From Pseudomonadota bacterium (GTDB taxonomy: Bacteria > Pseudomonadota > Alphaproteobacteria > UBA8366): DNA of 64,000 bases. Every line of letters begins with the position of its first letter. Position 1 is the stretch's first letter. The position numbers were made by a program, and so were the translations under genes. The notes beneath the pieces are model-generated. The model saw only the letters and a list, made by a program, of their open reading frames with translations. It made no database searches and was not told where the DNA came from. Location: NCBI GenBank assembly GCA_036339585.1, contig JAYZAS010000021.1, positions 1 through 64,000 on the forward strand, given 5' to 3'. Below are positions 52,032 through 62,566 of the stretch, one piece after another.

Positions 52032-52979
52032 CTAATTAGCTATAATAAATGAAAAGATATCATTACAAATACTTTCCGAATATTGCCTGCGGATATGTAA
52101 ATCTGGAATAATCTGATTCCGAAACCACGTCATTTGACGTTTGGCGTAGCGCCGCGTCGCTTGCTGAGCTCTTGCGACTGCATCTGCAAGATCGTGCTCA
52201 CCAGCAAGATAGGCACTAATTTCTGGCACACCCAAAATTCTCGAAGCTGGCTGATTGGAGCCTAAGTTAAGCTTTTTAAACGCTCTTACTTCATCCACAG
52301 CACCTTCTTTAATCATTTTCTCAAATCGTTTTCCACAAACCTCGTAAAGCTCTTTGCGTGGGGGGTCGAGGAGAATCGTTTTAAATTTAAATTTGTTATT
52401 CGCCCCAATAGCCGGCATGCTCTGCCAAGCCAATAAAGATTTGCCCGATGCTACCAACACTTCCAATGCCCGTGATACTCTCTGACTATCCCCCGGAGCC
52501 AAACGATTAGCTATCTTGTCTCCACGAGCGACTAATTCAGAATGCAAAGACTCAGAACCCTCTCGAACCAACCGCTCTTGGATCTCGGCGCGCACACTAT
52601 TGGGGATATAGGGCGTTGGAGGCAACCCATTTACAAGAGCCTTTAAATAGAGACCGGTACCCCCACAAATTATAGGTAAAGACGACTGATCAAAGGCTTT
52701 TTTGATCTCGACAATCGCTAGTTTCCTCCACTTCCCCACGTTAAAACTTTCTGTAACTGAGAGTGCTCCGTACAGCTTGTGGGGTACCTTCGCCTCATTT
52801 TCAACTGAGGGACGTGATGTTAAGGTACGAAACTCACGGTATACCTGCATACTGTCGGCGTTAATGATCACACCATTAAATCTTATTGCAACTGCAAGCG
52901 CGGCCGCTGATTTGCCGCTGGCTGTGGGGCCGGCAATGATGAGTCCAGTATTTGGCGAAGATTGTGCATTGTGTGTCAT
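52032..52979 (-). CDS. miaA: tRNA dimethylallyltransferase MiaA
   Basis: Prenylates A37 of tRNAs reading U-initial codons. P-loop GPTASGKSAAAL is at about residue 15; the substrate motif NADSMQVYREF and the catalytic GGTGLYLKAL follow, with C-terminal RRYAKRQMTWFRN. The frame is open 44 codons further upstream, but that part is antisense to serB, so I start at MTHNA (315 residues). Its ATG overlaps the serB ATG on the other strand by two bases. No ribosome site is visible, so leaderless translation is possible. Confidence 0.95.
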   Translation of the reverse strand: MTHNAQSSPNTGLIIAGPTASGKSAAALAVAIRFNGVIINADSMQVYREFRTLTSRPSVENEAKVPHKLYGALSVTESFNVGKWRKLAIVEIKKAFDQSSLPIICGGTGLYLKALVNGLPPTPYIPNSVRAEIQERLVREGSESLHSELVARGDKIANRLAPGDSQRVSRALEVLVASGKSLLAWQSMPAIGANNKFKFKTILLDPPRKELYEVCGKRFEKMIKEGAVDEVRAFKKLNLGSNQPASRILGVPEISAYLAGEHDLADAVARAQQATRRYAKRQMTWFRNQIIPDLHIRRQYSESICNDIFSFIIAN

Positions 52980-53916
52980 GACACTTAACGATACAGATGT
53001 TAACGCTATGGACAAAGTACTTACTTTAATTGATGAAAAAACTGGCCTCGAAGAGTCATATGTTATCGAGGTTATGTCAGCAATGGCTAGAATGGGAGCA
53101 ACCGTCAACACTCCGGAATGGCTTCACTTTAATACTGCCGCCGATTTAAAATTCTGCGGCATAGGCTGTAATGACGCACGTGATATTGCCTATCAGGTTT
53201 CACTTAGCAACAAGAAATTAGATGCCATAGCACAACAGACAGAGGGACGCCGAAAAAAACTTCTTATTGCAGATATGGAATCGACCATAATAGAAAATGA
53301 AATGCTTGATGAATTAGCTGAAGATGCAGGCATCTACGACCAGATAGCAGATATAACTGCGCGTGCTATGAATGGGGAAATAGACTTTGAAAAAGCTATT
53401 GAGGAAAGAGTAAAGTTACTTGCTGGTTTGCATACCTCTGCCTTACACAATACGGAAAAACGGATACGCCTCATGGAAGGCGCAGAACAGCTGATTACGA
53501 CAATGAAGTCAAAAGGGGCCTATTGTGCTTTAGTGTCGGGAGGTTTTACTTTTTATACCTCTAACATCCGTCTCCGACTTGGCTTTGATTTTGATCAGGC
53601 CAACGAGCTTGAAATTATTGATGAGAGGCTTACAGGGCAGGTAATCAAGCCAATCCTTGGCCGTAGCGCTAAAGAAAGTCGTCTCCGCGCTCTCTGTAAG
53701 CAACAGAATATCCCGTTAACCGCCACAATGGCCGTAGGTGATGGGGCAAATGATCTTGCTATGTTGGCGACAGCTGGCTTGGGAGTAGCATTTCATGCAA
53801 AACCAAGCGTTGCTGAAAAATCTGAAACACGGGTCAATCATAATAGCCTCACGGCACTTCTATACTTGCAAGGCTATAAGGTCGAGGATTTTGCCATCAA
53901 GGATTTTTGTCGCTAG
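52978..53916 (+). CDS. serB: Phosphoserine phosphatase
   Basis: HAD-family phosphatase making serine from phosphoserine, 312 residues from the ATG that overlaps the miaA start. An N-terminal domain of about 80 residues precedes the HAD core. Motif I reads LIADMESTII, so the second acidic residue is Glu rather than Asp; motif II is VSGGFTFYT, and motif IV VGDGANDLAML. The start MMSPV (52936) or MDKVL (53008) is possible. Its end overlaps the MFS4 stop by 20 bases on the other strand. Confidence 0.93.
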   Translation: MTLNDTDVNAMDKVLTLIDEKTGLEESYVIEVMSAMARMGATVNTPEWLHFNTAADLKFCGIGCNDARDIAYQVSLSNKKLDAIAQQTEGRRKKLLIADMESTIIENEMLDELAEDAGIYDQIADITARAMNGEIDFEKAIEERVKLLAGLHTSALHNTEKRIRLMEGAEQLITTMKSKGAYCALVSGGFTFYTSNIRLRLGFDFDQANELEIIDERLTGQVIKPILGRSAKESRLRALCKQQNIPLTATMAVGDGANDLAMLATAGLGVAFHAKPSVAEKSETRVNHNSLTALLYLQGYKVEDFAIKDFCR

Positions 53917-55120
53917 GCAGAGAATATGCCACGATGTTTGCCATAAGCATTGACGCAGCGACAAGATAAAAAACACATATAAGACCATATTTATCTGCAA
54001 TAAAGCCACTAGTCACAACCAATACTGGTGTCCACGCACTTTGCATCGCAAACATTACACTGGCTGCCGAGGCACCATGCCCCTGTGGCGCAAGGTCCAT
54101 CATCCAAGCTTGAGTAACAGGTCTAATTGCATAGAGAGCAAATCCTAAAATAGTTATTCCAACAACGAATATAGCTGCATCGCTGATAATGGTAAGGCAA
54201 ACGATTACAATCGTAATCGCAGACAGGCCGGCCATGACGATAGGACGCCGACCAATTCTATCAGACCATGTTCCTGCGAGTGGTCCGGTTACAAAGCCAC
54301 CAACCTGCATGGTTGCCATTGCAAGACCTTGCGCCTTTTCGGACAAACCTAGATTATCGACCAAGTATAAGGGAAGGGAAAAAAATATAACGAACAACGC
54401 TGAAGTTCGAAAGGCAGCCATTACTGAAAGTCCCAGTATAGCTCTATTTTTAATGAGCGAGACAAGGCCAGCCACATACTGACGTCTATCCATACCACGT
54501 TCTTTCCCACCAATATTTTTATTGGTATCTTTTGGTGACACCAAAATGAGCAATGCCACGCCGATGATAAAAACTGGCACTGCGCTAGCAAAAGCGGTCA
54601 CCTGCCAGCTCAACTGGAAGAAACCCACCAGCACAGAAACGGCGATCAATGGAGCTAGAATATCACCGAGGCTTGCTCCAACAGAATGAACGGAAAGTGC
54701 GTAGCCCTTATTTCCTGAATATTTCTGAGACAAAAAAGCAAGAGCAGCCGGATGCCATAAATTGTTGGACGCGCCGATCACCGCCATCATTAAAGCTAAG
54801 GTTAAAAAATCACCCGATAATCCGCATACGAAAATAGCTATGCCGCCCGAAATAACAGAGATCACTTGAAATAGTACACGCTTCCCAAAGATATCAACCA
54901 TTGCTCCGCTTACCGCGTTGGCAGCAAAAGAAGCAATGTGGAAAATCGCATGAAGGATACCGATCTCAGCATAATTGAGAGAGAAAGTTATTTTAATCCA
55001 TGGTGTCAAAACGGTGAAGACCATGTAGACCCAGTGGACCGCACCATGGCCAAGCCCGACCAAAACTATAGAAGTCTGTCCTTTGATTTTGAGGGCCTCA
55101 ACAAGGCCAAATTTGAACAT
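53897..55120 (-). CDS. MFS transporter, array member 4
   Basis: Twelve-helix major-facilitator carrier, 407 residues. It has GLGHGAVHWVYMVFTVLTPW in helix 1 and VDIFGKRVLFQV after helix 2. WSDRIGRRPIVMAG lies in the second half, and YAIRPVTQAWMMDLAP recurs in all four array members. The helix-1 GH...H signature and the RPV-W-D segment suggest a shared ligand site. It is the last and most serB-proximal copy, overlapping serB by 20 bases at the convergent ends. Substrate unknown. Confidence 0.9.
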   Translation of the reverse strand: MFKFGLVEALKIKGQTSIVLVGLGHGAVHWVYMVFTVLTPWIKITFSLNYAEIGILHAIFHIASFAANAVSGAMVDIFGKRVLFQVISVISGGIAIFVCGLSGDFLTLALMMAVIGASNNLWHPAALAFLSQKYSGNKGYALSVHSVGASLGDILAPLIAVSVLVGFFQLSWQVTAFASAVPVFIIGVALLILVSPKDTNKNIGGKERGMDRRQYVAGLVSLIKNRAILGLSVMAAFRTSALFVIFFSLPLYLVDNLGLSEKAQGLAMATMQVGGFVTGPLAGTWSDRIGRRPIVMAGLSAITIVIVCLTIISDAAIFVVGITILGFALYAIRPVTQAWMMDLAPQGHGASAASVMFAMQSAWTPVLVVTSGFIADKYGLICVFYLVAASMLMANIVAYSLPSDKNP

Positions 55121-55385
55121 TAGCCTAACTGCCTGACATTTGCGGGATTTTGGCGGAAAAATATAAGAATATGTGCAAAGAAGCCTGCTGCATAATAAGG
55201 GGTCCTAAAACTAGTAACTTCAAGATTATTTTAGCCCTAAGGATTGCTGATTGTTGGGCACTAAAATATTAGTGACCGCAAAGAATGTGTGATCTCGTGC
55301 CCGGCGCGAGTAGAGCAAGAGTTCCATTTTCTGGTTTTTTCAAAATAATCAGGTTCAGCTGCCATGAAACGAGGCCTTTTGTTGG

Positions 55386-56603
55386 TTAACTCTCATTCGC
55401 AGGATTATTTTTTGGCAAGAGGAAAGTCAAAATATTCGCCCCTAGCATTATGGCAGCAAAAAAATAGAATACATCTAACATACCTCTGTTATCAGCAATC
55501 CACCCCCCTACTATCGGTACTAAGGCATTGCCAGCCGCCTGCATGCTGAACATAACACTTGTAGCTGAGCCTCGAAATTCGCCCGGAACAAGATCTACTA
55601 TCCAACGTTGGAGCACAGGCCGCATTGCAAAGAGTACAAAACCAACCAATGAAATAACAAAAATGTAAGTGGTCGGGTTAGTGATATTTGTGGCTAAAAT
55701 TATTGCTAAAGACGAAATGGTGATACATACAAACAATACTGGCCGCGGTCCAAAACGATCTGAGGTATATCCACCAATTGGTGTGGCCAAGCCACCAGCA
55801 ATTTGCATTGCCAACATTCCCGTTCCCATCAGGGCAGCACTTACGCCCAGCACATCGATCAAATAAAGTGGAATGAAGACTAGCAATCCGTTTTGGGCCA
55901 TCGTTCGCAATGAACTAACAACGCAAACCATCATTGCCGGAATATTTGCTAATAAATCAATATAGCCGGCAAGGTAGGCCCTCAATCCCATTACCTTACT
56001 CTGCTTTCCATTAGTCCGTTTTTCTTTATGCAAAAGAATAGTCGCCAACAATGCCGCTGCTAGGAACCCCGGAACTCCTCCCGTCATAGCGGCAACTTGC
56101 CATGAGCCAATTAATGTCACTATCAATCCGCCAACCTGAAAAGCGATCGCTTCTGAAATATTTGCAGCGACAACATGAATAGAAAAGACCATGCCCTTCG
56201 CATTCTCATACTCCTCTGCCAAGAAAGCAAAAGCAGGCGGGTGCCAACCTTGTACGCCGACGGCCAGCATCCCAGCGAAAATGCATATCAAAAGAAAAGA
56301 TGGAGAAAACCCCAGCGCCAACATACTTATGCAGCAGATAAGAGCAGATAAAATAATGAACAAAACTCGGCGCCCACTCATATCAACAGCCAGTCCTGTG
56401 GCGAAGTTTACCAAAAATCCCGTGATATGAAATGTAGAGACAATTAAACCGGCTTCCGTATACGTAAGTCCCAATGCCTGTTTCATGAATGGCACAAGTA
56501 TAACAAATGTGCCAAAGGCATAATGTGTAGCGCCATGCCCAAACGATAGTAATATTACTGGCGCAAAAGGTTTACCACTTAATGAAACCCGTTTTTGGCT
56601 CAC
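55386..56603 (-). CDS. MFS transporter, array member 3
   Basis: MFS carrier of 405 residues, paralogous to its neighbours. Helix-1 SFGHGATHYAFGTFVILVPF, loop VDMSGRRVLFIIL, second-half TSDRFGPRPVLFV and FAMRPVLQRWIVDLVPGEF match the array pattern. Spacing to the next copy is about 250 bases, so each may have its own promoter. Confidence 0.9.
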   Translation of the reverse strand: MSQKRVSLSGKPFAPVILLSFGHGATHYAFGTFVILVPFMKQALGLTYTEAGLIVSTFHITGFLVNFATGLAVDMSGRRVLFIILSALICCISMLALGFSPSFLLICIFAGMLAVGVQGWHPPAFAFLAEEYENAKGMVFSIHVVAANISEAIAFQVGGLIVTLIGSWQVAAMTGGVPGFLAAALLATILLHKEKRTNGKQSKVMGLRAYLAGYIDLLANIPAMMVCVVSSLRTMAQNGLLVFIPLYLIDVLGVSAALMGTGMLAMQIAGGLATPIGGYTSDRFGPRPVLFVCITISSLAIILATNITNPTTYIFVISLVGFVLFAMRPVLQRWIVDLVPGEFRGSATSVMFSMQAAGNALVPIVGGWIADNRGMLDVFYFFAAIMLGANILTFLLPKNNPANES

Positions 56604-56746
56604 ACTTTTGCCCTCACGTTACCATCCACTTACCTGTTCAAAGCCTTGTATAATTTCCCATTTGTGGGGCACTAAATACGATTGCCAGCAACCACCCGCC
56701 AAGTCCAGTTCGGAAGACGAATGGTCCAGTCGTGAATAATTCTTTT

Positions 56747-56766
56747 ATAGTGAAAAACAACACTAT
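56747..56766. repeat. Inverted repeat between MFS copies 2 and 3
   Basis: A perfect 6-bp dyad ATAGTG-N8-CACTAT lies in the 249-base gap about 145 bases upstream of MFS copy 3. It could be an operator. No similar site was found upstream of the other copies by eye. Confidence 0.25.
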
Positions 56767-56852
56767 TATAACTTTTAGACGCACGAATCTTGATGGATCC
56801 TCGAACCTTCTCTAGCAGAAATTACTGTTTGAGAGCAATAAGTGATGTTGGT

Positions 56853-58070
56853 TTATTCGGCACCCGATGGTTTCCTACACTCCGGAACAAAAATGGTAAG
56901 AAAATTAGCCATGAGCAATAATATGGCTATCCCATAAAACACCATCAAAAGTCCGTAACTATCTGCTACCCAGCCACCTATCGGCGGGGCCGCAAGGCCA
57001 AAGAAGGATTGAATAACAGAGCGGACCGCCACGCTAGTACCATGTAATTTCTGTGGGACCATGTCTAGAATCCAACTCTGTGTCACAGGCCTTGTCGCAT
57101 AAAGCGTGAACCCTAGAAAACCTATTCCAATCACAAATAAAATCTCGTTACCAACTAAGGTCATAACCAGAATAATGGCTGTTGCTGCTAACAACGCCAC
57201 GATCAAAATTGGTTTACGACCGTAATTGTCTGACGCCAAACCACCGATTGGATTAGCTATCATACCCCCGACGTGCATCACCGCATAAACAGTGCCGATT
57301 AGAGATGCGCCTGCTCCCATTACGTCCCGCATATACAGTGGCACAAAAGTTCTTATCAACAGTTGTGCTGTCGAGCGCATTCCCATCATACAGCAAAGAA
57401 TTATGACATCGAAGTTCTTCAGCAGACTCACAAAGCCACGAAGGTATTGTTTGAGTGACATTCCCCTTGCATGCTTTGCTCTCTTACCTGTGTCCTTCGG
57501 CATAAGGAAAATAAATAAGATTATAGCAGCAGAAATTGATGCGGCTGCTGGAACAAGCGCTCCCATTTGCCAAGTCGTTGATGCAATCACCATCCCAGCT
57601 ATCAACGGACCAATCGCCTCTCCTATATTCGCACCCATGCCATGAAGACCAACAACATAGCCCCAGTTAGAGGTATAATAAAACGAAAGGAAAGCGGTAG
57701 CCGGAGCATGCCAAAATTGTGTCATGCCACCCAATAATGCGGCTAGAATACAGAATGTTAAAATATTAGAGGCTACGGAAAATGCCACCATCGCTAAACC
57801 CCCAACAGCCAAAGCACATACCTGGAAGACCACACGTCGACCAGACATATCTACCACGGGGCCACTTACGAGGCTAAAAATTAACACTCCAGCCTCAAAT
57901 GAGGTTAGCAGCCAGCCAATTTGCAAATAAGTGAATTGGTATTCTTCCCTTATAAAAGGCAAAAGAATATAAAACACGCCGATCATCCAGTGGGTTGCTG
58001 CATGTCCGGCTAGCATTCCGAATGCAGGCCCGGGATCCCGGAGTTTGAACGCAGCAAGAATTTTTTGCAT
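56853..58070 (-). CDS. MFS transporter, array member 2
   Basis: MFS carrier of 405 residues. LAGHAATHWMIGVFYILLPF in helix 1, VDMSGRRVVFQVC after helix 2, ASDNYGRKPILIV in the second half and YATRPVTQSWILDMVPQKL match the array. It is 118 bases after copy 1 on the same strand. Confidence 0.9.
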   Translation of the reverse strand: MQKILAAFKLRDPGPAFGMLAGHAATHWMIGVFYILLPFIREEYQFTYLQIGWLLTSFEAGVLIFSLVSGPVVDMSGRRVVFQVCALAVGGLAMVAFSVASNILTFCILAALLGGMTQFWHAPATAFLSFYYTSNWGYVVGLHGMGANIGEAIGPLIAGMVIASTTWQMGALVPAAASISAAIILFIFLMPKDTGKRAKHARGMSLKQYLRGFVSLLKNFDVIILCCMMGMRSTAQLLIRTFVPLYMRDVMGAGASLIGTVYAVMHVGGMIANPIGGLASDNYGRKPILIVALLAATAIILVMTLVGNEILFVIGIGFLGFTLYATRPVTQSWILDMVPQKLHGTSVAVRSVIQSFFGLAAPPIGGWVADSYGLLMVFYGIAILLLMANFLTIFVPECRKPSGAE

Positions 58071-58188
58071 AGGCTTAAAGACAATCTACAAAATATATTG
58101 CTACTGCAGAATTCAGTAACTTAGAAAAGGACATTAGGCCTCAATTGAGAATAATGCAAAAAATGCAGAAAACAGTTACTGGGAGTAC

Positions 58189-59418
58189 CTAGGGGTTATC
58201 CTTCGGCAAAAAGAATACTACTGCATTGGCAAGCAAAAGCATGATTGCAAACCAATAAAATATTGCAGCAATACCATATATGTCTGCTATGATGCCGGTT
58301 ATCGCCATGCTCGGGATAGAGAAAGCAGACTGGGTAGCAAACATTAGACTGGTGGCAGTACCCCGAAACTGACTCTCCACGGTGTCCATCATCCAACTTA
58401 TTAGCACTGGACGCGTAGCATAGATTGAAAACCCAACTAGACAAATTCCAATAACTATTAAAAATTCGTCCTGTAAGAGAGGCAACATTAATATGAATAT
58501 TGTGGCTGCGGCAATTGCAGCCAGCATAACCTTTCGACGACCACAGCGATCTGAAGCAATACCTGCTGGCACTGCAGCAACCGACCCTCCCAAATTAAGC
58601 AAAAGAAGTGCGATCCCAGCTTGAGTGAGACTCCAATTAAATTGATCCACCAAGTATACCGGAAGGAAATTTCTTGAACCAGATTGTGCCGTCGTCCTCA
58701 AGCCAGCTATTAAACCTATCCCCAGTACCGTCTTATTTTTCCCTTGTTCAATGATACCCGCTATATAATGGCTAAAATTTATACTATTTTCACTCGTATC
58801 TCCGGTCCGTTCCCGAATCGCCCTTACCATTAACGGGGGAAGGATCAATAAACCAGGTACCGTATTAATGAGCATCACATTCCGCCAGGACATCGGTTCG
58901 AGCTGAATGATCATATAATTGCCGGTGAGCATTGCAGGAACTAGGAGCGGCACCAAGATGTCACCGATATTTGAACCCATACCGTGAATGGACATGACAT
59001 AACCGCGATGAGAATGAAAACGCGTGGCGAGATAGGGAATAGCGGCAGGGTGCCATAACTGGTTAGAAAACGCTATGAATACGCCAAGGACCAGAAGAAC
59101 TGCATACTCATTGGCAAAGCCAAGAAATATGACAGCTAACGATAAAATTGCTATCGAGAGCACCTGTAGTAATTGTCTCCGGCCTGTAAGGTCAGCAAAG
59201 GGCCCACCAGTAATTGCCGAAAAAAAACTTCCAGTTGTGTATATAGTAAAGAATAAGCCTAGCTCAGTGTAAGAGAGATTAAATTTTTCTTTTATAAGTG
59301 GACTAACAACTAGCACGATGGAATGCAAGTAGTGGGTCACTCCATGCCCTGTGCTGATCAATGCCACAACACCCTGTTCACGAAAAGTGAGTGGTGGCAC
59401 ACTATCAACCTGTACCAT
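58189..59418 (-). CDS. MFS transporter, array member 1
   Basis: MFS carrier of 409 residues, the first copy in transcription order after degP. Helix 1 STGHGVTHYLHSIVLVVSPL, loop FADLTGRRQLLQV, second-half ASDRCGRRKVMLA and YATRPVLISWMMDTVES match the array pattern. It differs from the others in having a short acidic segment (GDTSENSI) between the halves. Confidence 0.9.
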   Translation of the reverse strand: MVQVDSVPPLTFREQGVVALISTGHGVTHYLHSIVLVVSPLIKEKFNLSYTELGLFFTIYTTGSFFSAITGGPFADLTGRRQLLQVLSIAILSLAVIFLGFANEYAVLLVLGVFIAFSNQLWHPAAIPYLATRFHSHRGYVMSIHGMGSNIGDILVPLLVPAMLTGNYMIIQLEPMSWRNVMLINTVPGLLILPPLMVRAIRERTGDTSENSINFSHYIAGIIEQGKNKTVLGIGLIAGLRTTAQSGSRNFLPVYLVDQFNWSLTQAGIALLLLNLGGSVAAVPAGIASDRCGRRKVMLAAIAAATIFILMLPLLQDEFLIVIGICLVGFSIYATRPVLISWMMDTVESQFRGTATSLMFATQSAFSIPSMAITGIIADIYGIAAIFYWFAIMLLLANAVVFFLPKDNP

Positions 59419-59655
59419 AAATCCATTCCTTACGAACGACTAATGACCACCTCAGTTATAAACTCTTTTTCAATAAGCGAAAAACCCTGCTTTAAAAAAG
59501 GTACGAGTGCAACTAGGCCATCGCAAACAAGGACGTTTAAACAAATTGAATGGCATTTTGGGTCAAACACTTTATAGATGTTATATGCACGAAGCTAAAA
59601 TGCCCGTTCAAACCTACCCTAGTTGGCGTGTCTTTTTTGCACAATTAAAAATTCT

Positions 59656-61161
59656 CTATTTCTCTAACTTCAAGCCAACAAATCGTACTTCTTCTCCTTC
59701 TTTAATCAAAAGTAGAATTGACTTTTGATTTGAACCTTTAGCTTTTTCCAAAGCTGCAGAAAAGTCCTTTGGATTTTTTATCTTAACTTGATTCACTTCG
59801 ACGATGATTGATCCCGGCCTCAATCCTTTGTCAGCTGCCAAACTGCCTGGTTTTACCGCAGTGACAACGGCGCCCTCTGCTGAGTCGGGTAATTTGAAGC
59901 GTTTGACGAGATCATCACTTACTGGTGCCACACTTAGCCCAAGGGCATCAAATTTGCTCACTTTACCATTTGTACGGGGTTTCCCAGTACGAGCGACTGT
60001 CTGGTCTACCTTCTCGAGTTCACCGAGTTGCACATATAATTGACGGTTTCGTTTGTTACGCCAAATGACAACTCGGACACTCTTTCCGACATTAGTTTCA
60101 GCGACCATACGTGGCAAACGGCGTGATTCATCCACTCGCTTTCCATCAAACTTCAATATCACATCCCCGCTCTTAAATCCGGCACGATCGGCGGGGCTCC
60201 CTTTCACCACGCCAGCTACAAGCGCACCGTAAACTTCGCTCAAGCCCAAGCTGTCAGCAATATCCTGTGAAACAGTCTGGATCTGCACGCCAAGCCACCC
60301 ACGTTTTGTAACGCCAAATCTTTTTAGTTGACTGATGACGCCCTTAGCCAATTGTGACGGTATTGAAAATCCTATGCCTATACTACCCCCGTTTGGAGAC
60401 AGTATTGCCGTGTTAATGCCTATCACACGGCCCTTCATATCAAACAAGGGTCCCCCTGAATTTCCCCGATTTATAGGAGCGTCAGTCTGGATAAAGTCAT
60501 CATACGGACCGGACCTAATATCACGTCCGCGAGCTGAAATTATGCCGGCAGAAACCGACCCCCCCAAGCCAAGCGGATTACCTATAGCAAGCACCCAATC
60601 ACCAACACGAGCTTTATCTGAGTCGCCCCATTCCAACGCAGGTAGAGGTTTTGCCGATTCAACCTTTAGCAAGGCTAAGTCTGTTTTCTCATCCTTTCCA
60701 ACCACCTTCGCTTCCAGACGCCTCTTATCCTTCATAACTACTGTGATCTGATCAGCCCCATCGATAACGTGATTGTTAGTCACAATCAGGCCGCTACTAT
60801 CTATAACGAAACCAGAGCCAAGGGAGGTAGCCTTTTCACTAGGCTCAGGAGAACCTTTACGCTGTTGTTTAAACTGATCAAAGAACTCCTTGAATGGAGA
60901 TCCCGGAGGAAGATCAAAATCTGGAAAGCCCTGAGGACTTTTCCGAGTTACCTTTTGGCTTGTCGAGATATTTACCACCGCAGGTAACATTTTTTCTACC
61001 AAATCAGCGAAACTGTCAGGCGCGCTGCGTGCCAGCGCCGATGGATAATGAAACATTACCGCAGCAAAAATCATCAACTTTAAAAAAGCAGGTATGAAAG
61101 CTGCTTTAAGAAAAGTTAATCTAATCGAACCTATTCGGCTCATTGGCTCCTCCATATTCAA
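59656..61161 (-). CDS. degP: Do/DegP-family periplasmic serine protease
   Basis: Envelope quality-control protease, 501 residues. Signal anchor (LMIFAAVMFHYPSALA, about 29-45), then a trypsin-like domain with His131 (VTNNHVIDG), Asp of DLALLKV and Ser235 (RGNSGGP), then two PDZ domains (GWLGVQIQ, about 300; LGLSVAPV and GLRPGSIIVEV). It degrades or refolds periplasmic proteins as a cage. The module hflK-hflC-DUF2065-degP is on one strand here, with about 150 bases before degP. Confidence 0.94.
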   Translation of the reverse strand: MNMEEPMSRIGSIRLTFLKAAFIPAFLKLMIFAAVMFHYPSALARSAPDSFADLVEKMLPAVVNISTSQKVTRKSPQGFPDFDLPPGSPFKEFFDQFKQQRKGSPEPSEKATSLGSGFVIDSSGLIVTNNHVIDGADQITVVMKDKRRLEAKVVGKDEKTDLALLKVESAKPLPALEWGDSDKARVGDWVLAIGNPLGLGGSVSAGIISARGRDIRSGPYDDFIQTDAPINRGNSGGPLFDMKGRVIGINTAILSPNGGSIGIGFSIPSQLAKGVISQLKRFGVTKRGWLGVQIQTVSQDIADSLGLSEVYGALVAGVVKGSPADRAGFKSGDVILKFDGKRVDESRRLPRMVAETNVGKSVRVVIWRNKRNRQLYVQLGELEKVDQTVARTGKPRTNGKVSKFDALGLSVAPVSDDLVKRFKLPDSAEGAVVTAVKPGSLAADKGLRPGSIIVEVNQVKIKNPKDFSAALEKAKGSNQKSILLLIKEGEEVRFVGLKLEK

Positions 61162-61311
61162 AACAGCGTGCGAAGAGATTTACACACTACAACCACACTT
61201 CCTCGCCTCTTAACATGTGCACCGCCGACGGATGCAAACTTATCTAAAACGCACAACATATTAGTGACCCCAAAACAGTGGCTGAAATATGGCGCGTGAA
61301 GTGCCTTAAAG

Positions 61312-61671
61312 TCATATAAAAATTGCGAGGCCAGCTGCCCCGATACCTAATGCCGTCTCTCCCCATATTTTTACAACTGCCATGCTGGCCTTAGAGCCGT
61401 GATGCATAGCCCTTTTCATAACTACTGGGAACAAACCGTAGAGTGTGCCCTCCAACACAATGGTGAGGCAAGCTATTTGCAGTATGCCATCAGTTATGCC
61501 AGCGAGCACTCCGCCGAAAGCAACAAAAAAGAGCCCGACAAAACCCAACGTTTTTATCGGCACATCCTGTAGATCCGCCATTTTGCGACGCGTCCAACCT
61601 GGCCAAAAAGCAGCAATAGCGCCCTCAATCGCTAGAAATAAAGCCACCGCTAAAAATATGAGCTGGAACAT
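61312..61671 (-). CDS. DUF2065 protein, apparently duplicated
   Basis: Small membrane protein (119 residues). The family is usually about 60 residues; here MFQLIFLAVALFLAIEGAIA to FGGVLAG is one unit, and LTIVLEGTLYGLFPVVMKRAM to GAAGLAIFI looks like a second, diverged unit. The ATG is preferred because AAGAAGGGC precedes it; the frame extends 11 codons upstream, overlapping hflC by 20 bases. Its location between hflC and degP is typical. Function unknown, membrane protease related by context. Confidence 0.82.
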   Translation of the reverse strand: MFQLIFLAVALFLAIEGAIAAFWPGWTRRKMADLQDVPIKTLGFVGLFFVAFGGVLAGITDGILQIACLTIVLEGTLYGLFPVVMKRAMHHGSKASMAVVKIWGETALGIGAAGLAIFI

Positions 61672-61684
61672 GCAGCCCTTCTTA

Positions 61685-62566
61685 CTACTTCCTTTTCTTC
61701 CCAAGATTGAAGTTGTTAAAAAATCTAAAAAACTCGCTATCCGGACTTAAAACCATAGTTGTATCATTTCCGATTAAAGCCTTCTGATACTGTTCCAGCG
61801 ACTTGTAAAATGCAAAAAATTGGGGGTCTCTACCATAAGCTTCCCCCAATATATTGTTACGACCGGCTTCTCCTTGGCCACGCTGGATTTGAGCATCTCG
61901 CTCAGCATTAGCTAATATAACGGTACGTTCCTTATCAGCCTGAGCGCGTATTTTTTGAGCGATCTCCTTACCCTCAGCACGGGCCTCACGGGCCTGGCGC
62001 TCTCTTTCTGTACGCATGCGGTTAAACACCGCTTGGCTAGTTTGTTCGGGCAGGTCCGTACGACCTATTCGTATATCAACAATCTTGATACCAAACCGCA
62101 ATGCATCGGCTTCGATATCTTTTTGAATTTGCTCCATCAGGTCAGTACGTTTCGCGGACAGAACTTCTTTAAGTGAAACCCGAGCGATTACTGCACGCAG
62201 TGCCGGATTAACAAGTGCTGCCAACCTATCGCGGGCACCTATTTCGTTTTGAACGGTTTTGAAAAATTCCAACGCATTTACAATTCTGTACCGTGCGAAA
62301 GCATCTACATTTATACGCTTTTTGTCGGTCAAAAGAACCTCAAAAGGAGGTGGGTCCAGATCGAGGGTCCGTTTCTCATAAAACGTAACGTTCTGCACAA
62401 ACGGAACTTTCCAATGCAGACCAGGTTTATCTTTCACTGCACGGGGATCTCCAAATTGGAGAACTATCGCCTGCTGCGTTTCATGGACAGTAAAAAAGGT
62501 TTGGGAAATCACTACCAATGTAACGAGTGCGAATACGCCAAAGATGACTGGTTTTTTGCTCTTCAT
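61685..62566 (-). CDS. hflC: FtsH modulator HflC
   Basis: SPFH-domain membrane protein of 293 residues, partner of HflK in the ring that encloses FtsH. An N-terminal helix (VIFGVFALVTLVVISQTFF) anchors it, then the SPFH domain (ETQQAIVLQFGDPRAV through SLKEVLSAKRTDLMEQIQ) and a coiled coil (REARAEGKEIAQKIRAQADK). It begins 12 bases after hflK. Confidence 0.96.
   Translation of the reverse strand: MKSKKPVIFGVFALVTLVVISQTFFTVHETQQAIVLQFGDPRAVKDKPGLHWKVPFVQNVTFYEKRTLDLDPPPFEVLLTDKKRINVDAFARYRIVNALEFFKTVQNEIGARDRLAALVNPALRAVIARVSLKEVLSAKRTDLMEQIQKDIEADALRFGIKIVDIRIGRTDLPEQTSQAVFNRMRTERERQAREARAEGKEIAQKIRAQADKERTVILANAERDAQIQRGQGEAGRNNILGEAYGRDPQFFAFYKSLEQYQKALIGNDTTMVLSPDSEFFRFFNNFNLGKKRK

What the first reader, a model, noticed from the sequence alone, without database searches (positions are those of the whole stretch)
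53897..59418. Four tandem paralogous MFS carriers between serB and degP
All share GHxxxH in helix 1, VDxxGRR-type loops and an RPV..W..D segment. In the alphaproteobacterial order I recall, degP and serB are neighbours, so this looks like an array grown into a core locus. Gaps of 120-265 bases suggest separate promoters and tuned substrates.
Basis: partly seen in the sequence, partly recalled or inferred. Interest (0 to 1): 0.5.

Follow-up and report, generated by a model that had tools for sequence, protein, structure and literature searches.

The report
Old, shrinking array of membrane carriers
Four related membrane transport genes sit side by side where the bacterium's relatives usually keep just one; the row arose long ago by copying that one gene in place and has since lost members, and the carriers probably take up small organic acids, so it is an ordinary kind of gene family with an unusually readable history.

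Summary
In detail: four MFS genes (30-36% identical to one another, no further copy in the genome) lie between convergent serB and degP. In 19 of 39 genomes examined, MFS genes of this subfamily sit between serB and degP on one contig; in the 12 of these outside the window's family it is a single gene. So a resident carrier was duplicated in place. Orthologues a, b, c, d are collinear across two genera that between them also keep b' and c', so their ancestor probably had six; the window's genome has four. The 265-bp gap between MFSa and MFSb holds the scar of deleted b'. In the two six-copy genomes the carriers are 5-128 bp apart behind four catabolic enzyme genes, like one operon. All copies are under purifying selection (dN/dS 0.03-0.15). 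Substrates are unknown: some neighbours in relatives (PrpD-like, enolase-type, CoA-transferase, MaoC genes) favour organic-acid uptake; efflux is not excluded. Paralogue-specific residues are not enriched in cavity helices, so 'tuned substrates' stays unproven. New member of a known kind; modest interest.

The parts
53897..55120 (-). MFSa, carrier next to serB; of the six lines shared by the window's genus and g4 the one closest to the single-copy carriers of relatives (probable founder)
   Evidence: (mean 45.4% identity to 16 single-copy relatives against 34.8-40.3% for b, b', c, c', d; but the serB-side copy of G003/G007, a b-type, has 49.4%)
55165..55365 (-). Scar of a deleted fifth carrier (b'): matches its first 70 residues, frame broken; full-length b' genes exist in G002, G005, G009
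   Evidence: blastx against family proteins only, 44% over 70 aa, E 6.9e-10; profile 24.0 bits, E 1.9e-8; DNA alignment with G001 and G002
55386..56603 (-). MFSb carrier
56853..58070 (-). MFSc carrier
58189..59418 (-). MFSd carrier, next to degP; the copy least like the single-copy relatives
52978..53916 (+). serB, phosphoserine phosphatase, convergent flank of the array
   Evidence: TIGR00338 225.5 bits against cut-off 144.15 (scanned as 52966-53916); start chosen by eye at the ATG before TLNDTD
59656..61161 (-). degP-like Do-family periplasmic protease, upstream flank
   Evidence: TIGR02037 516.5 bits against cut-off 416.2

Best explanation
The array descends from one MFS carrier gene resident between degP and serB in this bacterial order. 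In the window's family that gene was duplicated repeatedly in place (six lines by the tree in the ancestor of the window's genus and genus g4), the copies diverged to 30-45% identity, and some were later lost: c' from the three genomes of the window's genus, b' from G000 and G001, leaving a scar. Shown: synteny, orthologue groups, order, scar, purifying selection. Inferred: each gene makes a 12-helix secondary (proton- or anion-coupled) carrier that brings small organic acids into the cell, the invariant residues H25/H29 (helix 1), H123 (4), H145 (5), R238 (7) and R333 (10) serving coupling and carboxylate binding, and the retained paralogues differ in which acids they carry, feeding CoA- and PrpD/enolase-type catabolism.
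For: Origin: MFS gene(s) between serB and degP on one contig in 19 of 39 genomes, single in the 12 outside family f1. 1:1 collinear orthologue groups a, b, c, d across G000, G001, G002, G005, G009 (68-98% identical within groups), with b/b' and c/c' adjacent in the array and sisters in the tree (bootstrap/SH-aLRT 100/98 and 100/99). Scar. dN/dS 0.065-0.152 (G000-G001), 0.069-0.147 (G000-G002), 0.033-0.122 (G009-G005) against degP's 0.062-0.095. Function: in G005 and G009 four enzyme genes stand before the array on its strand; in G009 they are a PrpB-like lyase, an amidohydrolase, a muconate-cycloisomerase-like enzyme and MmgE/PrpD. Distant relatives sit by or near CoA-transferase III and MaoC (L048), acyl-CoA dehydrogenase (L057), enoyl-CoA hydratase (L061, L062) or MR_MLE (L056) genes. 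MFSa model pLDDT 89; first of the aligned solved structures is OxlT with oxalate (Z 45.1), then SLC37A4 (43.9); best PDB sequences for the 41-row profile are SLC37A4 and GlpT.
Against: Substrate and direction are untested. Among 12 E. coli carriers scored with the family profile, the efflux pumps MdtG (82.5 bits) and Fsr (63.7) score as high as UhpC (63.7) and GlpT (57.6), and the four-row profile put the exporter NorA first in the PDB, so sequence does not choose between uptake and export. Z values of many MFS folds lie close together (38.1 at rank 50). Positions fixed within but differing between orthologue groups are not enriched in helices 1, 4, 7, 10 (20 of 55 against 31 of 84 in the other helices, p = 1.0). 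Several neighbours elsewhere have no Pfam family (L052, L056, L057) or are unrelated to acids (HerA helicase, guanylate cyclase, transposase). The enzyme genes beside the array in g4 are not at that place in the window's genus. Tree: deep forks are weak (54/85 for all f1 copies without G006), and the quick tree warned that the joins b with b', d with the second g2 copy, and a with G004/G008 bring long branches together.
Confidence: 0.6

Rival explanations
1. The carriers are proton-driven exporters (Fsr/MdtG-like) of toxic compounds or metabolites, multiplied for resistance.
For: Family profile scores MdtG 82.5 and Fsr 63.7 bits, Fsr over the full length; NorA first in the PDB for the four-row profile and among the matches of the larger one.
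Against: UhpC and GlpT score alike; MdtG's score is split between two partial matches; the g4 neighbours and several in other lineages are catabolic; invariant histidines and arginines on helices 1, 4, 5, 7, 10 suit an anion better than hydrophobic drugs (inference).
Confidence: 0.2
2. Anion exchangers working like the organophosphate:phosphate antiporters (GlpT, SLC37A4).
For: Best PDB sequence matches of the 41-row profile are SLC37A4 and GlpT, over nearly the full length; R238 aligns with SLC37A4 K240 (counted by hand).
Against: SLC37A4 R28 in helix 1 falls on a non-basic position of the profile (Y32 in MFSa); no listed NCBIfam model of such antiporters reaches its cut-off.
Confidence: 0.15
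3. Dosage only: the copies share one substrate and differ in expression.
For: No enrichment of paralogue-specific residues in cavity helices; the family-invariant residues are kept in every copy.
Against: Paralogues are 30-45% identical within one genome while orthologues are 68-98%: separate lines kept for long; amplification for dosage would be expected to stay near-identical (inference).
Confidence: 0.15

Closest known systems
OxlT, oxalate:formate antiporter (PDB 8hpk)
   Same: 12-helix MFS fold, first of the aligned solved structures (Z 45.1, 2.9 A over 381 residues)
   Different: 14% identity; TIGR04259 and TIGR00890 far below cut-off where listed
SLC37A4 / GlpT, organophosphate:phosphate antiporters
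   Same: Best sequence matches among solved structures for the 41-row profile
   Different: Helix-1 arginine of SLC37A4 not found at the aligned position; 16% identity in the structural alignment of SLC37A4
E. coli Fsr, fosmidomycin efflux pump
   Same: Colinear over the full length, 63.7 bits to the family profile
   Different: 21-24% identity in the longer BLAST matches shown; UhpC scores the same
Paralogue expansions of catabolic enzymes in SAR202 marine bacteria (PMC6946804, passages read)
   Same: Expansion within one lineage, read there as a widened range of organic molecules used
   Different: Enzymes, not carriers; the terms 'transporter' and 'major facilitator' do not occur in that main text

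Membership tests
Major facilitator superfamily (Pfam MFS_1) | Score above the Pfam cut-off and 12-helix fold | tested here: met
   133.6-162.1 bits against 33.4; MFSa model, pLDDT 89, with helices that match the MFS fold. Only MFSa was folded.
Any NCBIfam MFS subfamily (PgtP, D-galactonate, aromatic acid, Bcr/CflA and so on) | Score above the curated cut-off of a subfamily or equivalog model | tested here: not met
   No listed row of the four proteins reaches its cut-off; best is TIGR00881 with 62.7-79.8 bits against 407.75 (for b and c 25 of 29 and 25 of 30 rows were shown)
Organophosphate:phosphate antiporters | Basic residue in helix 1 aligned with SLC37A4 R28 | tested here: not met
   HMMER alignment sets R28 against a non-basic profile position (Y32 in MFSa); a shifted alignment is possible. 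That R28 is a defining residue is recalled.
Organophosphate:phosphate antiporters | Exchange of phosphate and organophosphate | not testable with these tools
   needs transport assays
Oxalate/formate antiporters | TIGR04259 / TIGR00890 cut-off | tested here: not met
   22.4-28.5 bits against 335 (b, d) and 18.2-32.9 against 374.85 (a, d) where listed
Fsr fosmidomycin exporters | Fsr closer than other E. coli carriers | tested here: inconclusive
   MdtG 82.5, Fsr 63.7, UhpC 63.7, GlpT 57.6 bits; 12 chosen E. coli carriers, not all of that genome's
In-place tandem paralogue array | Neighbouring copies are sisters and relatives hold a single copy at the same place | tested here: met
   monophyly of all f1 copies (without G006) only 54/85

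The most novel reading that the evidence does not exclude
The array is the uptake side of a lineage-wide expansion of organic-acid catabolism: the six genomes of the window's family that are at least 94% complete carry 22-45 MmgE/PrpD genes, and each carrier line serves a different branched or unsaturated acid, with copies gained and lost as the enzyme sets change. That would give a place where one can match carrier paralogues to dissolved organic acids one by one. (The link is loose: G003 and G007 have 22 and 37 such genes with only two carriers, and f2 genomes G011 and G014 have 14 and 21.)
Probability: 0.2. Interest if true: 0.55.

Novelty: new member of a known kind. Interest (0 to 1): 0.3.

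Why it matters
It is a clean natural record of in-place duplication, divergence and loss of carriers at a fixed chromosomal site, with the single-copy state, the six-copy state and a visible scar all preserved in relatives. If the copies differ in substrate, the series would be a compact test bed for how secondary carriers change specificity and for uptake of poorly known organic acids. No model searched here assigns the subfamily a function.

Tried and rejected
Separate promoters: the sigma-70 scan of 53800-61700 found 12 sites against 14.3 expected and 9 terminator-like sites against 9.4 expected; the four minus-strand promoter-like sites all lie inside genes. This covers only that promoter type. 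The terminator-like hairpin at 58120-58100 in the d-c gap looks conserved in G001 and G002, but the number of such sites is at chance level.

Scar of c' in the c-b gap: none found; loss of c' from the window's genus rests on the tree alone.

Substrate tuning seen in cavity helices: tested, no enrichment. Positions such as 119-121 beside W122-H123 vary between copies while nearly fixed in single-copy relatives, but that was picked out after looking.

f2 second copies as close kin of b-d: the quick tree put them near, the careful one did not; holding them together is not rejected (p-AU 0.288).

Array at another site: only G011 has its subfamily copy away from serB-degP while these are adjacent. 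Outside the order, 5 of 5 examined single copies have no match to serB or degP in the 15-19 kb fetched.

The G006 row is incomplete (373 aa). Codons with N were skipped in the dN/dS count (the G001 stretch holds 263 N).

Literature: no paper on this array was found (0, 5 and 0 papers; the five, seen as listing, are four plant gene-family studies and one on phosphate in land life). and the rest of 71 were seen as listings only; PMC12290011 and PMC6946804 were read as passages.

Full report
WHAT IS THERE. Four full-length MFS genes of one subfamily lie head to tail on the minus strand between degP and convergent serB. All are MFS_1 by Pfam; none of the NCBIfam subfamily models listed reaches its cut-off. 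They are 30.2-35.9% identical pairwise, and the own genome has no further copy: four matches at E <= 1e-20 with their profile, the next match to MFSa being E 4.7e-4. GHxxxH (GHAATH in c) and RPV-W-D are in all four, the VDxxGRR loop in a loose form.

THE SITE IN RELATIVES. Three searches of the same 39 genomes (own included) located the MFS, serB and degP genes, and gene maps were made of fetched stretches (the printed output was cut in the middle, and L069-L076 were printed again). In 19 of 39 the MFS gene or genes lie between serB and degP on one contig: G000 (4 copies), G001 (4), G002 (5), G003 (2), G005 (6), G007 (2), G009 (6) in family f1, and one copy each in G014, G019, G022, G028, G033 (f2), G013, G018, G021, G027 (f4) and G015, G017, G023 (f3; the G023 gene is read in two frames). 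In G021 and G027 other genes share the interval, and in G015 one further ORF. In 7 of 39 (G004, G006, G008, G024, G025, G031, G035) the contigs show the MFS gene near only one of the two flanks (in G024 a short degP-like piece; in G008 with one ORF between), or in pieces on two contigs. In G031 the gene on the other side is not serB but a periplasmic-binding-protein gene. In G011 the gene is elsewhere and serB and degP are adjacent without it. G037 showed only a second-type copy. The other 11 of 39 (G010, G012, G016, G020, G026, G029, G030, G032, G034, G036, G038) have nothing better than about 5e-32; in G029 and G032 an alpha/beta hydrolase gene stands between serB and degP. A sample of 241 genomes of the class (own included; at most 7 candidates scored in each) gave 7 with a match at E <= 1e-110, each except the window's own with one copy; the five outside the order show no serB or degP in the stretches fetched. 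So the subfamily at this site looks like a feature of the order, and multiple copies here were seen only in family f1.

HISTORY. A tree of 55 proteins gives 1:1 orthologue groups a, b, c, d shared by three genomes of the window's genus and two of genus g4, in the same order along the chromosome. b' (G002, G005, G009) is sister to b (100/98) and lies next to it; c' (G005, G009) is sister to c (100/99) and lies next to it. Hence the ancestor of both genera should have had a, b, b', c, c', d, and the window's genome has lost two. The two copies of G003 and G007 fall with b/b' (100/98) and, less surely, with d (93/84; 55 in the quick tree). The 80-protein quick tree gives the same b/b' and c/c' pairs (97 and 99) but warns that long branches meet in the joins b-b', d with the g2 copy, and a with G004/G008. 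Among the six lines MFSa keeps the highest identity to single-copy relatives (45.4% mean over 16; the others 34.8-40.3%), though the serB-side copy of G003/G007 has 49.4%; a groups with the single copies of G004 and G008 (90/92). MFSa as founder is therefore likely, not shown. All f1 copies without G006 form one side of a branch with only 54/85.

THE SCAR. The 265-bp gap between MFSa and MFSb holds, at 55165-55365 on the minus strand, a stretch 44% identical over 70 residues to the start of the G002 b' protein (E 6.9e-10 against a set of family proteins); a b' profile finds it with 24.0 bits (E 1.9e-8) and, below the inclusion threshold, in the other two frames (E 0.01 and 0.035), as expected of a frame-broken remnant. 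The DNA of G000, G001 and G002 aligns through it. No c' remnant was found in the 249-bp c-b gap. In G009 and G005 the carriers are 5-126 and 5-128 bp apart (ORF starts taken at the first start codon), and the enzyme genes before them in G009 are -46 to 51 bp apart, as in one operon. The gap argument for separate promoters therefore fails as stated, though promoters are not excluded.

SELECTION. dN/dS between G000 and G001 is 0.065-0.152 for the four carriers (degP 0.095, ilvB 0.037), between G000 and G002 0.069-0.147 (degP 0.062, ilvB 0.054), and between G009 and G005 0.033-0.122 for six carriers (degP 0.091). All copies look maintained.

WHAT THEY PROBABLY DO. The MFSa model (mean pLDDT 89, pTM 0.88) has the MFS fold; of 1000 solved chains aligned, oxalate-bound OxlT ranks first (Z 45.1) and SLC37A4 second (43.9), with many others close behind. 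By sequence the 41-row profile finds SLC37A4 and GlpT best, while the four-row profile put NorA first. Over 78 family rows H25, H29, D76, W122, H123, H145, R238, R333, P334, W339 and Q360 are among the invariant residues; helices 1, 4, 7 and 10 line the cavity in MFS carriers (recalled), so H25, H29, H123, R238 and R333 are candidates for binding and coupling (inference). In G005 and G009 four enzyme genes precede the array on its strand. Those of G009 are a PrpB-like lyase, an amidohydrolase, a muconate-cycloisomerase-like enzyme and MmgE/PrpD (none reaches an NCBIfam cut-off); for G005 the last two were confirmed as 96% and 94% identical, the first two only by size and place. Among distant relatives, L048 stands by CoA-transferase III, MaoC and a glutathione transferase, L046 by a CoA-transferase III and a glutathione transferase, L057 by an acyl-CoA dehydrogenase, L061 and L062 by an enoyl-CoA hydratase, and L056 near an MR_MLE gene but beside a transposase; the tested neighbours in L052, one in L056 and one in L057 match no Pfam family. 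The known itaconate/methylsuccinate cluster combines a CoA transferase, a hydratase, a lyase, an acyl-CoA dehydrogenase and an MmgE/PrpD protein (PMC12290011, passages), which makes small branched dicarboxylates reasonable candidates. Against this, the profile scores the exporters MdtG and Fsr as well as UhpC and GlpT (12 chosen E. coli carriers), and some neighbours elsewhere are irrelevant to acids. Organic-acid uptake is thus the best guess at about 50%; in-place origin and later loss are far surer, about 90%.

SUBSTRATE DIFFERENCES. Of 162 positions fixed within each of groups a-d, 49 are the same in all and 58 show three or more residues; these are not enriched in helices 1, 4, 7, 10 (20 of 55 against 31 of 84; p = 1.0). 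Long separate maintenance argues for distinct roles; the residue test does not add to it.

IDENTITY OF THE RELATIVES. They are metagenome-assembled, but arrays of four to six copies recur in five genomes, the window's included.

VERDICT. Observation confirmed; interpretation half right. An old, selectively kept, now shrinking in-place array of an uncharacterised MFS subfamily: a new member of a known kind.

Noticed in passing
whole genome G000 (2.79 Mb) and family f1: Large expansion of MmgE/PrpD genes (PF03972): 27 in G000, 24 in G002, 22 in G003, 45 in G005, 37 in G007, 43 in G009, also 14 and 21 in f2 genomes G011 and G014, against 0-1 in six f3/f4 genomes of the order (G012, G013, G015-G018) (19 genomes). 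It recalls the enzyme expansions reported for SAR202.
   Followed up: partly
L078:4054-8831 and the same place in L076: Four-gene catabolic cassette between degP and the array, seen only in the two g4 genomes; the best matches of its cycloisomerase-like and MmgE/PrpD proteins in the window's genome are 27-28% and 36% identical and on other contigs.
   Followed up: partly
L092:7507-9750 and L091:10926-13217: A CHASE2-guanylate/adenylate cyclase gene lies between serB and degP beside the single carrier in two f4 genomes.
   Followed up: no
L113-L120: Eight f2 genomes (G011, G014, G019, G022, G028, G031, G033, G037) carry a second, distinct subfamily member elsewhere; neighbours differ where checked (HerA helicase in L113; aldolase, luciferase-like and TauD in L115).
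   Followed up: partly
window 58100-58120: A hairpin with a T-rich tail in the d-c gap is largely conserved in G001 and G002; possible terminator or attenuator, though the number of such sites is at chance level.
   Followed up: no
L048, L053, L055, L058, L064, L066, L071: In Acidiferrobacteraceae-like and other MAGs the subfamily member has neighbours of similar size on both sides (CoA-transferase III and glutathione transferase where checked, L048 only).
   Followed up: partly
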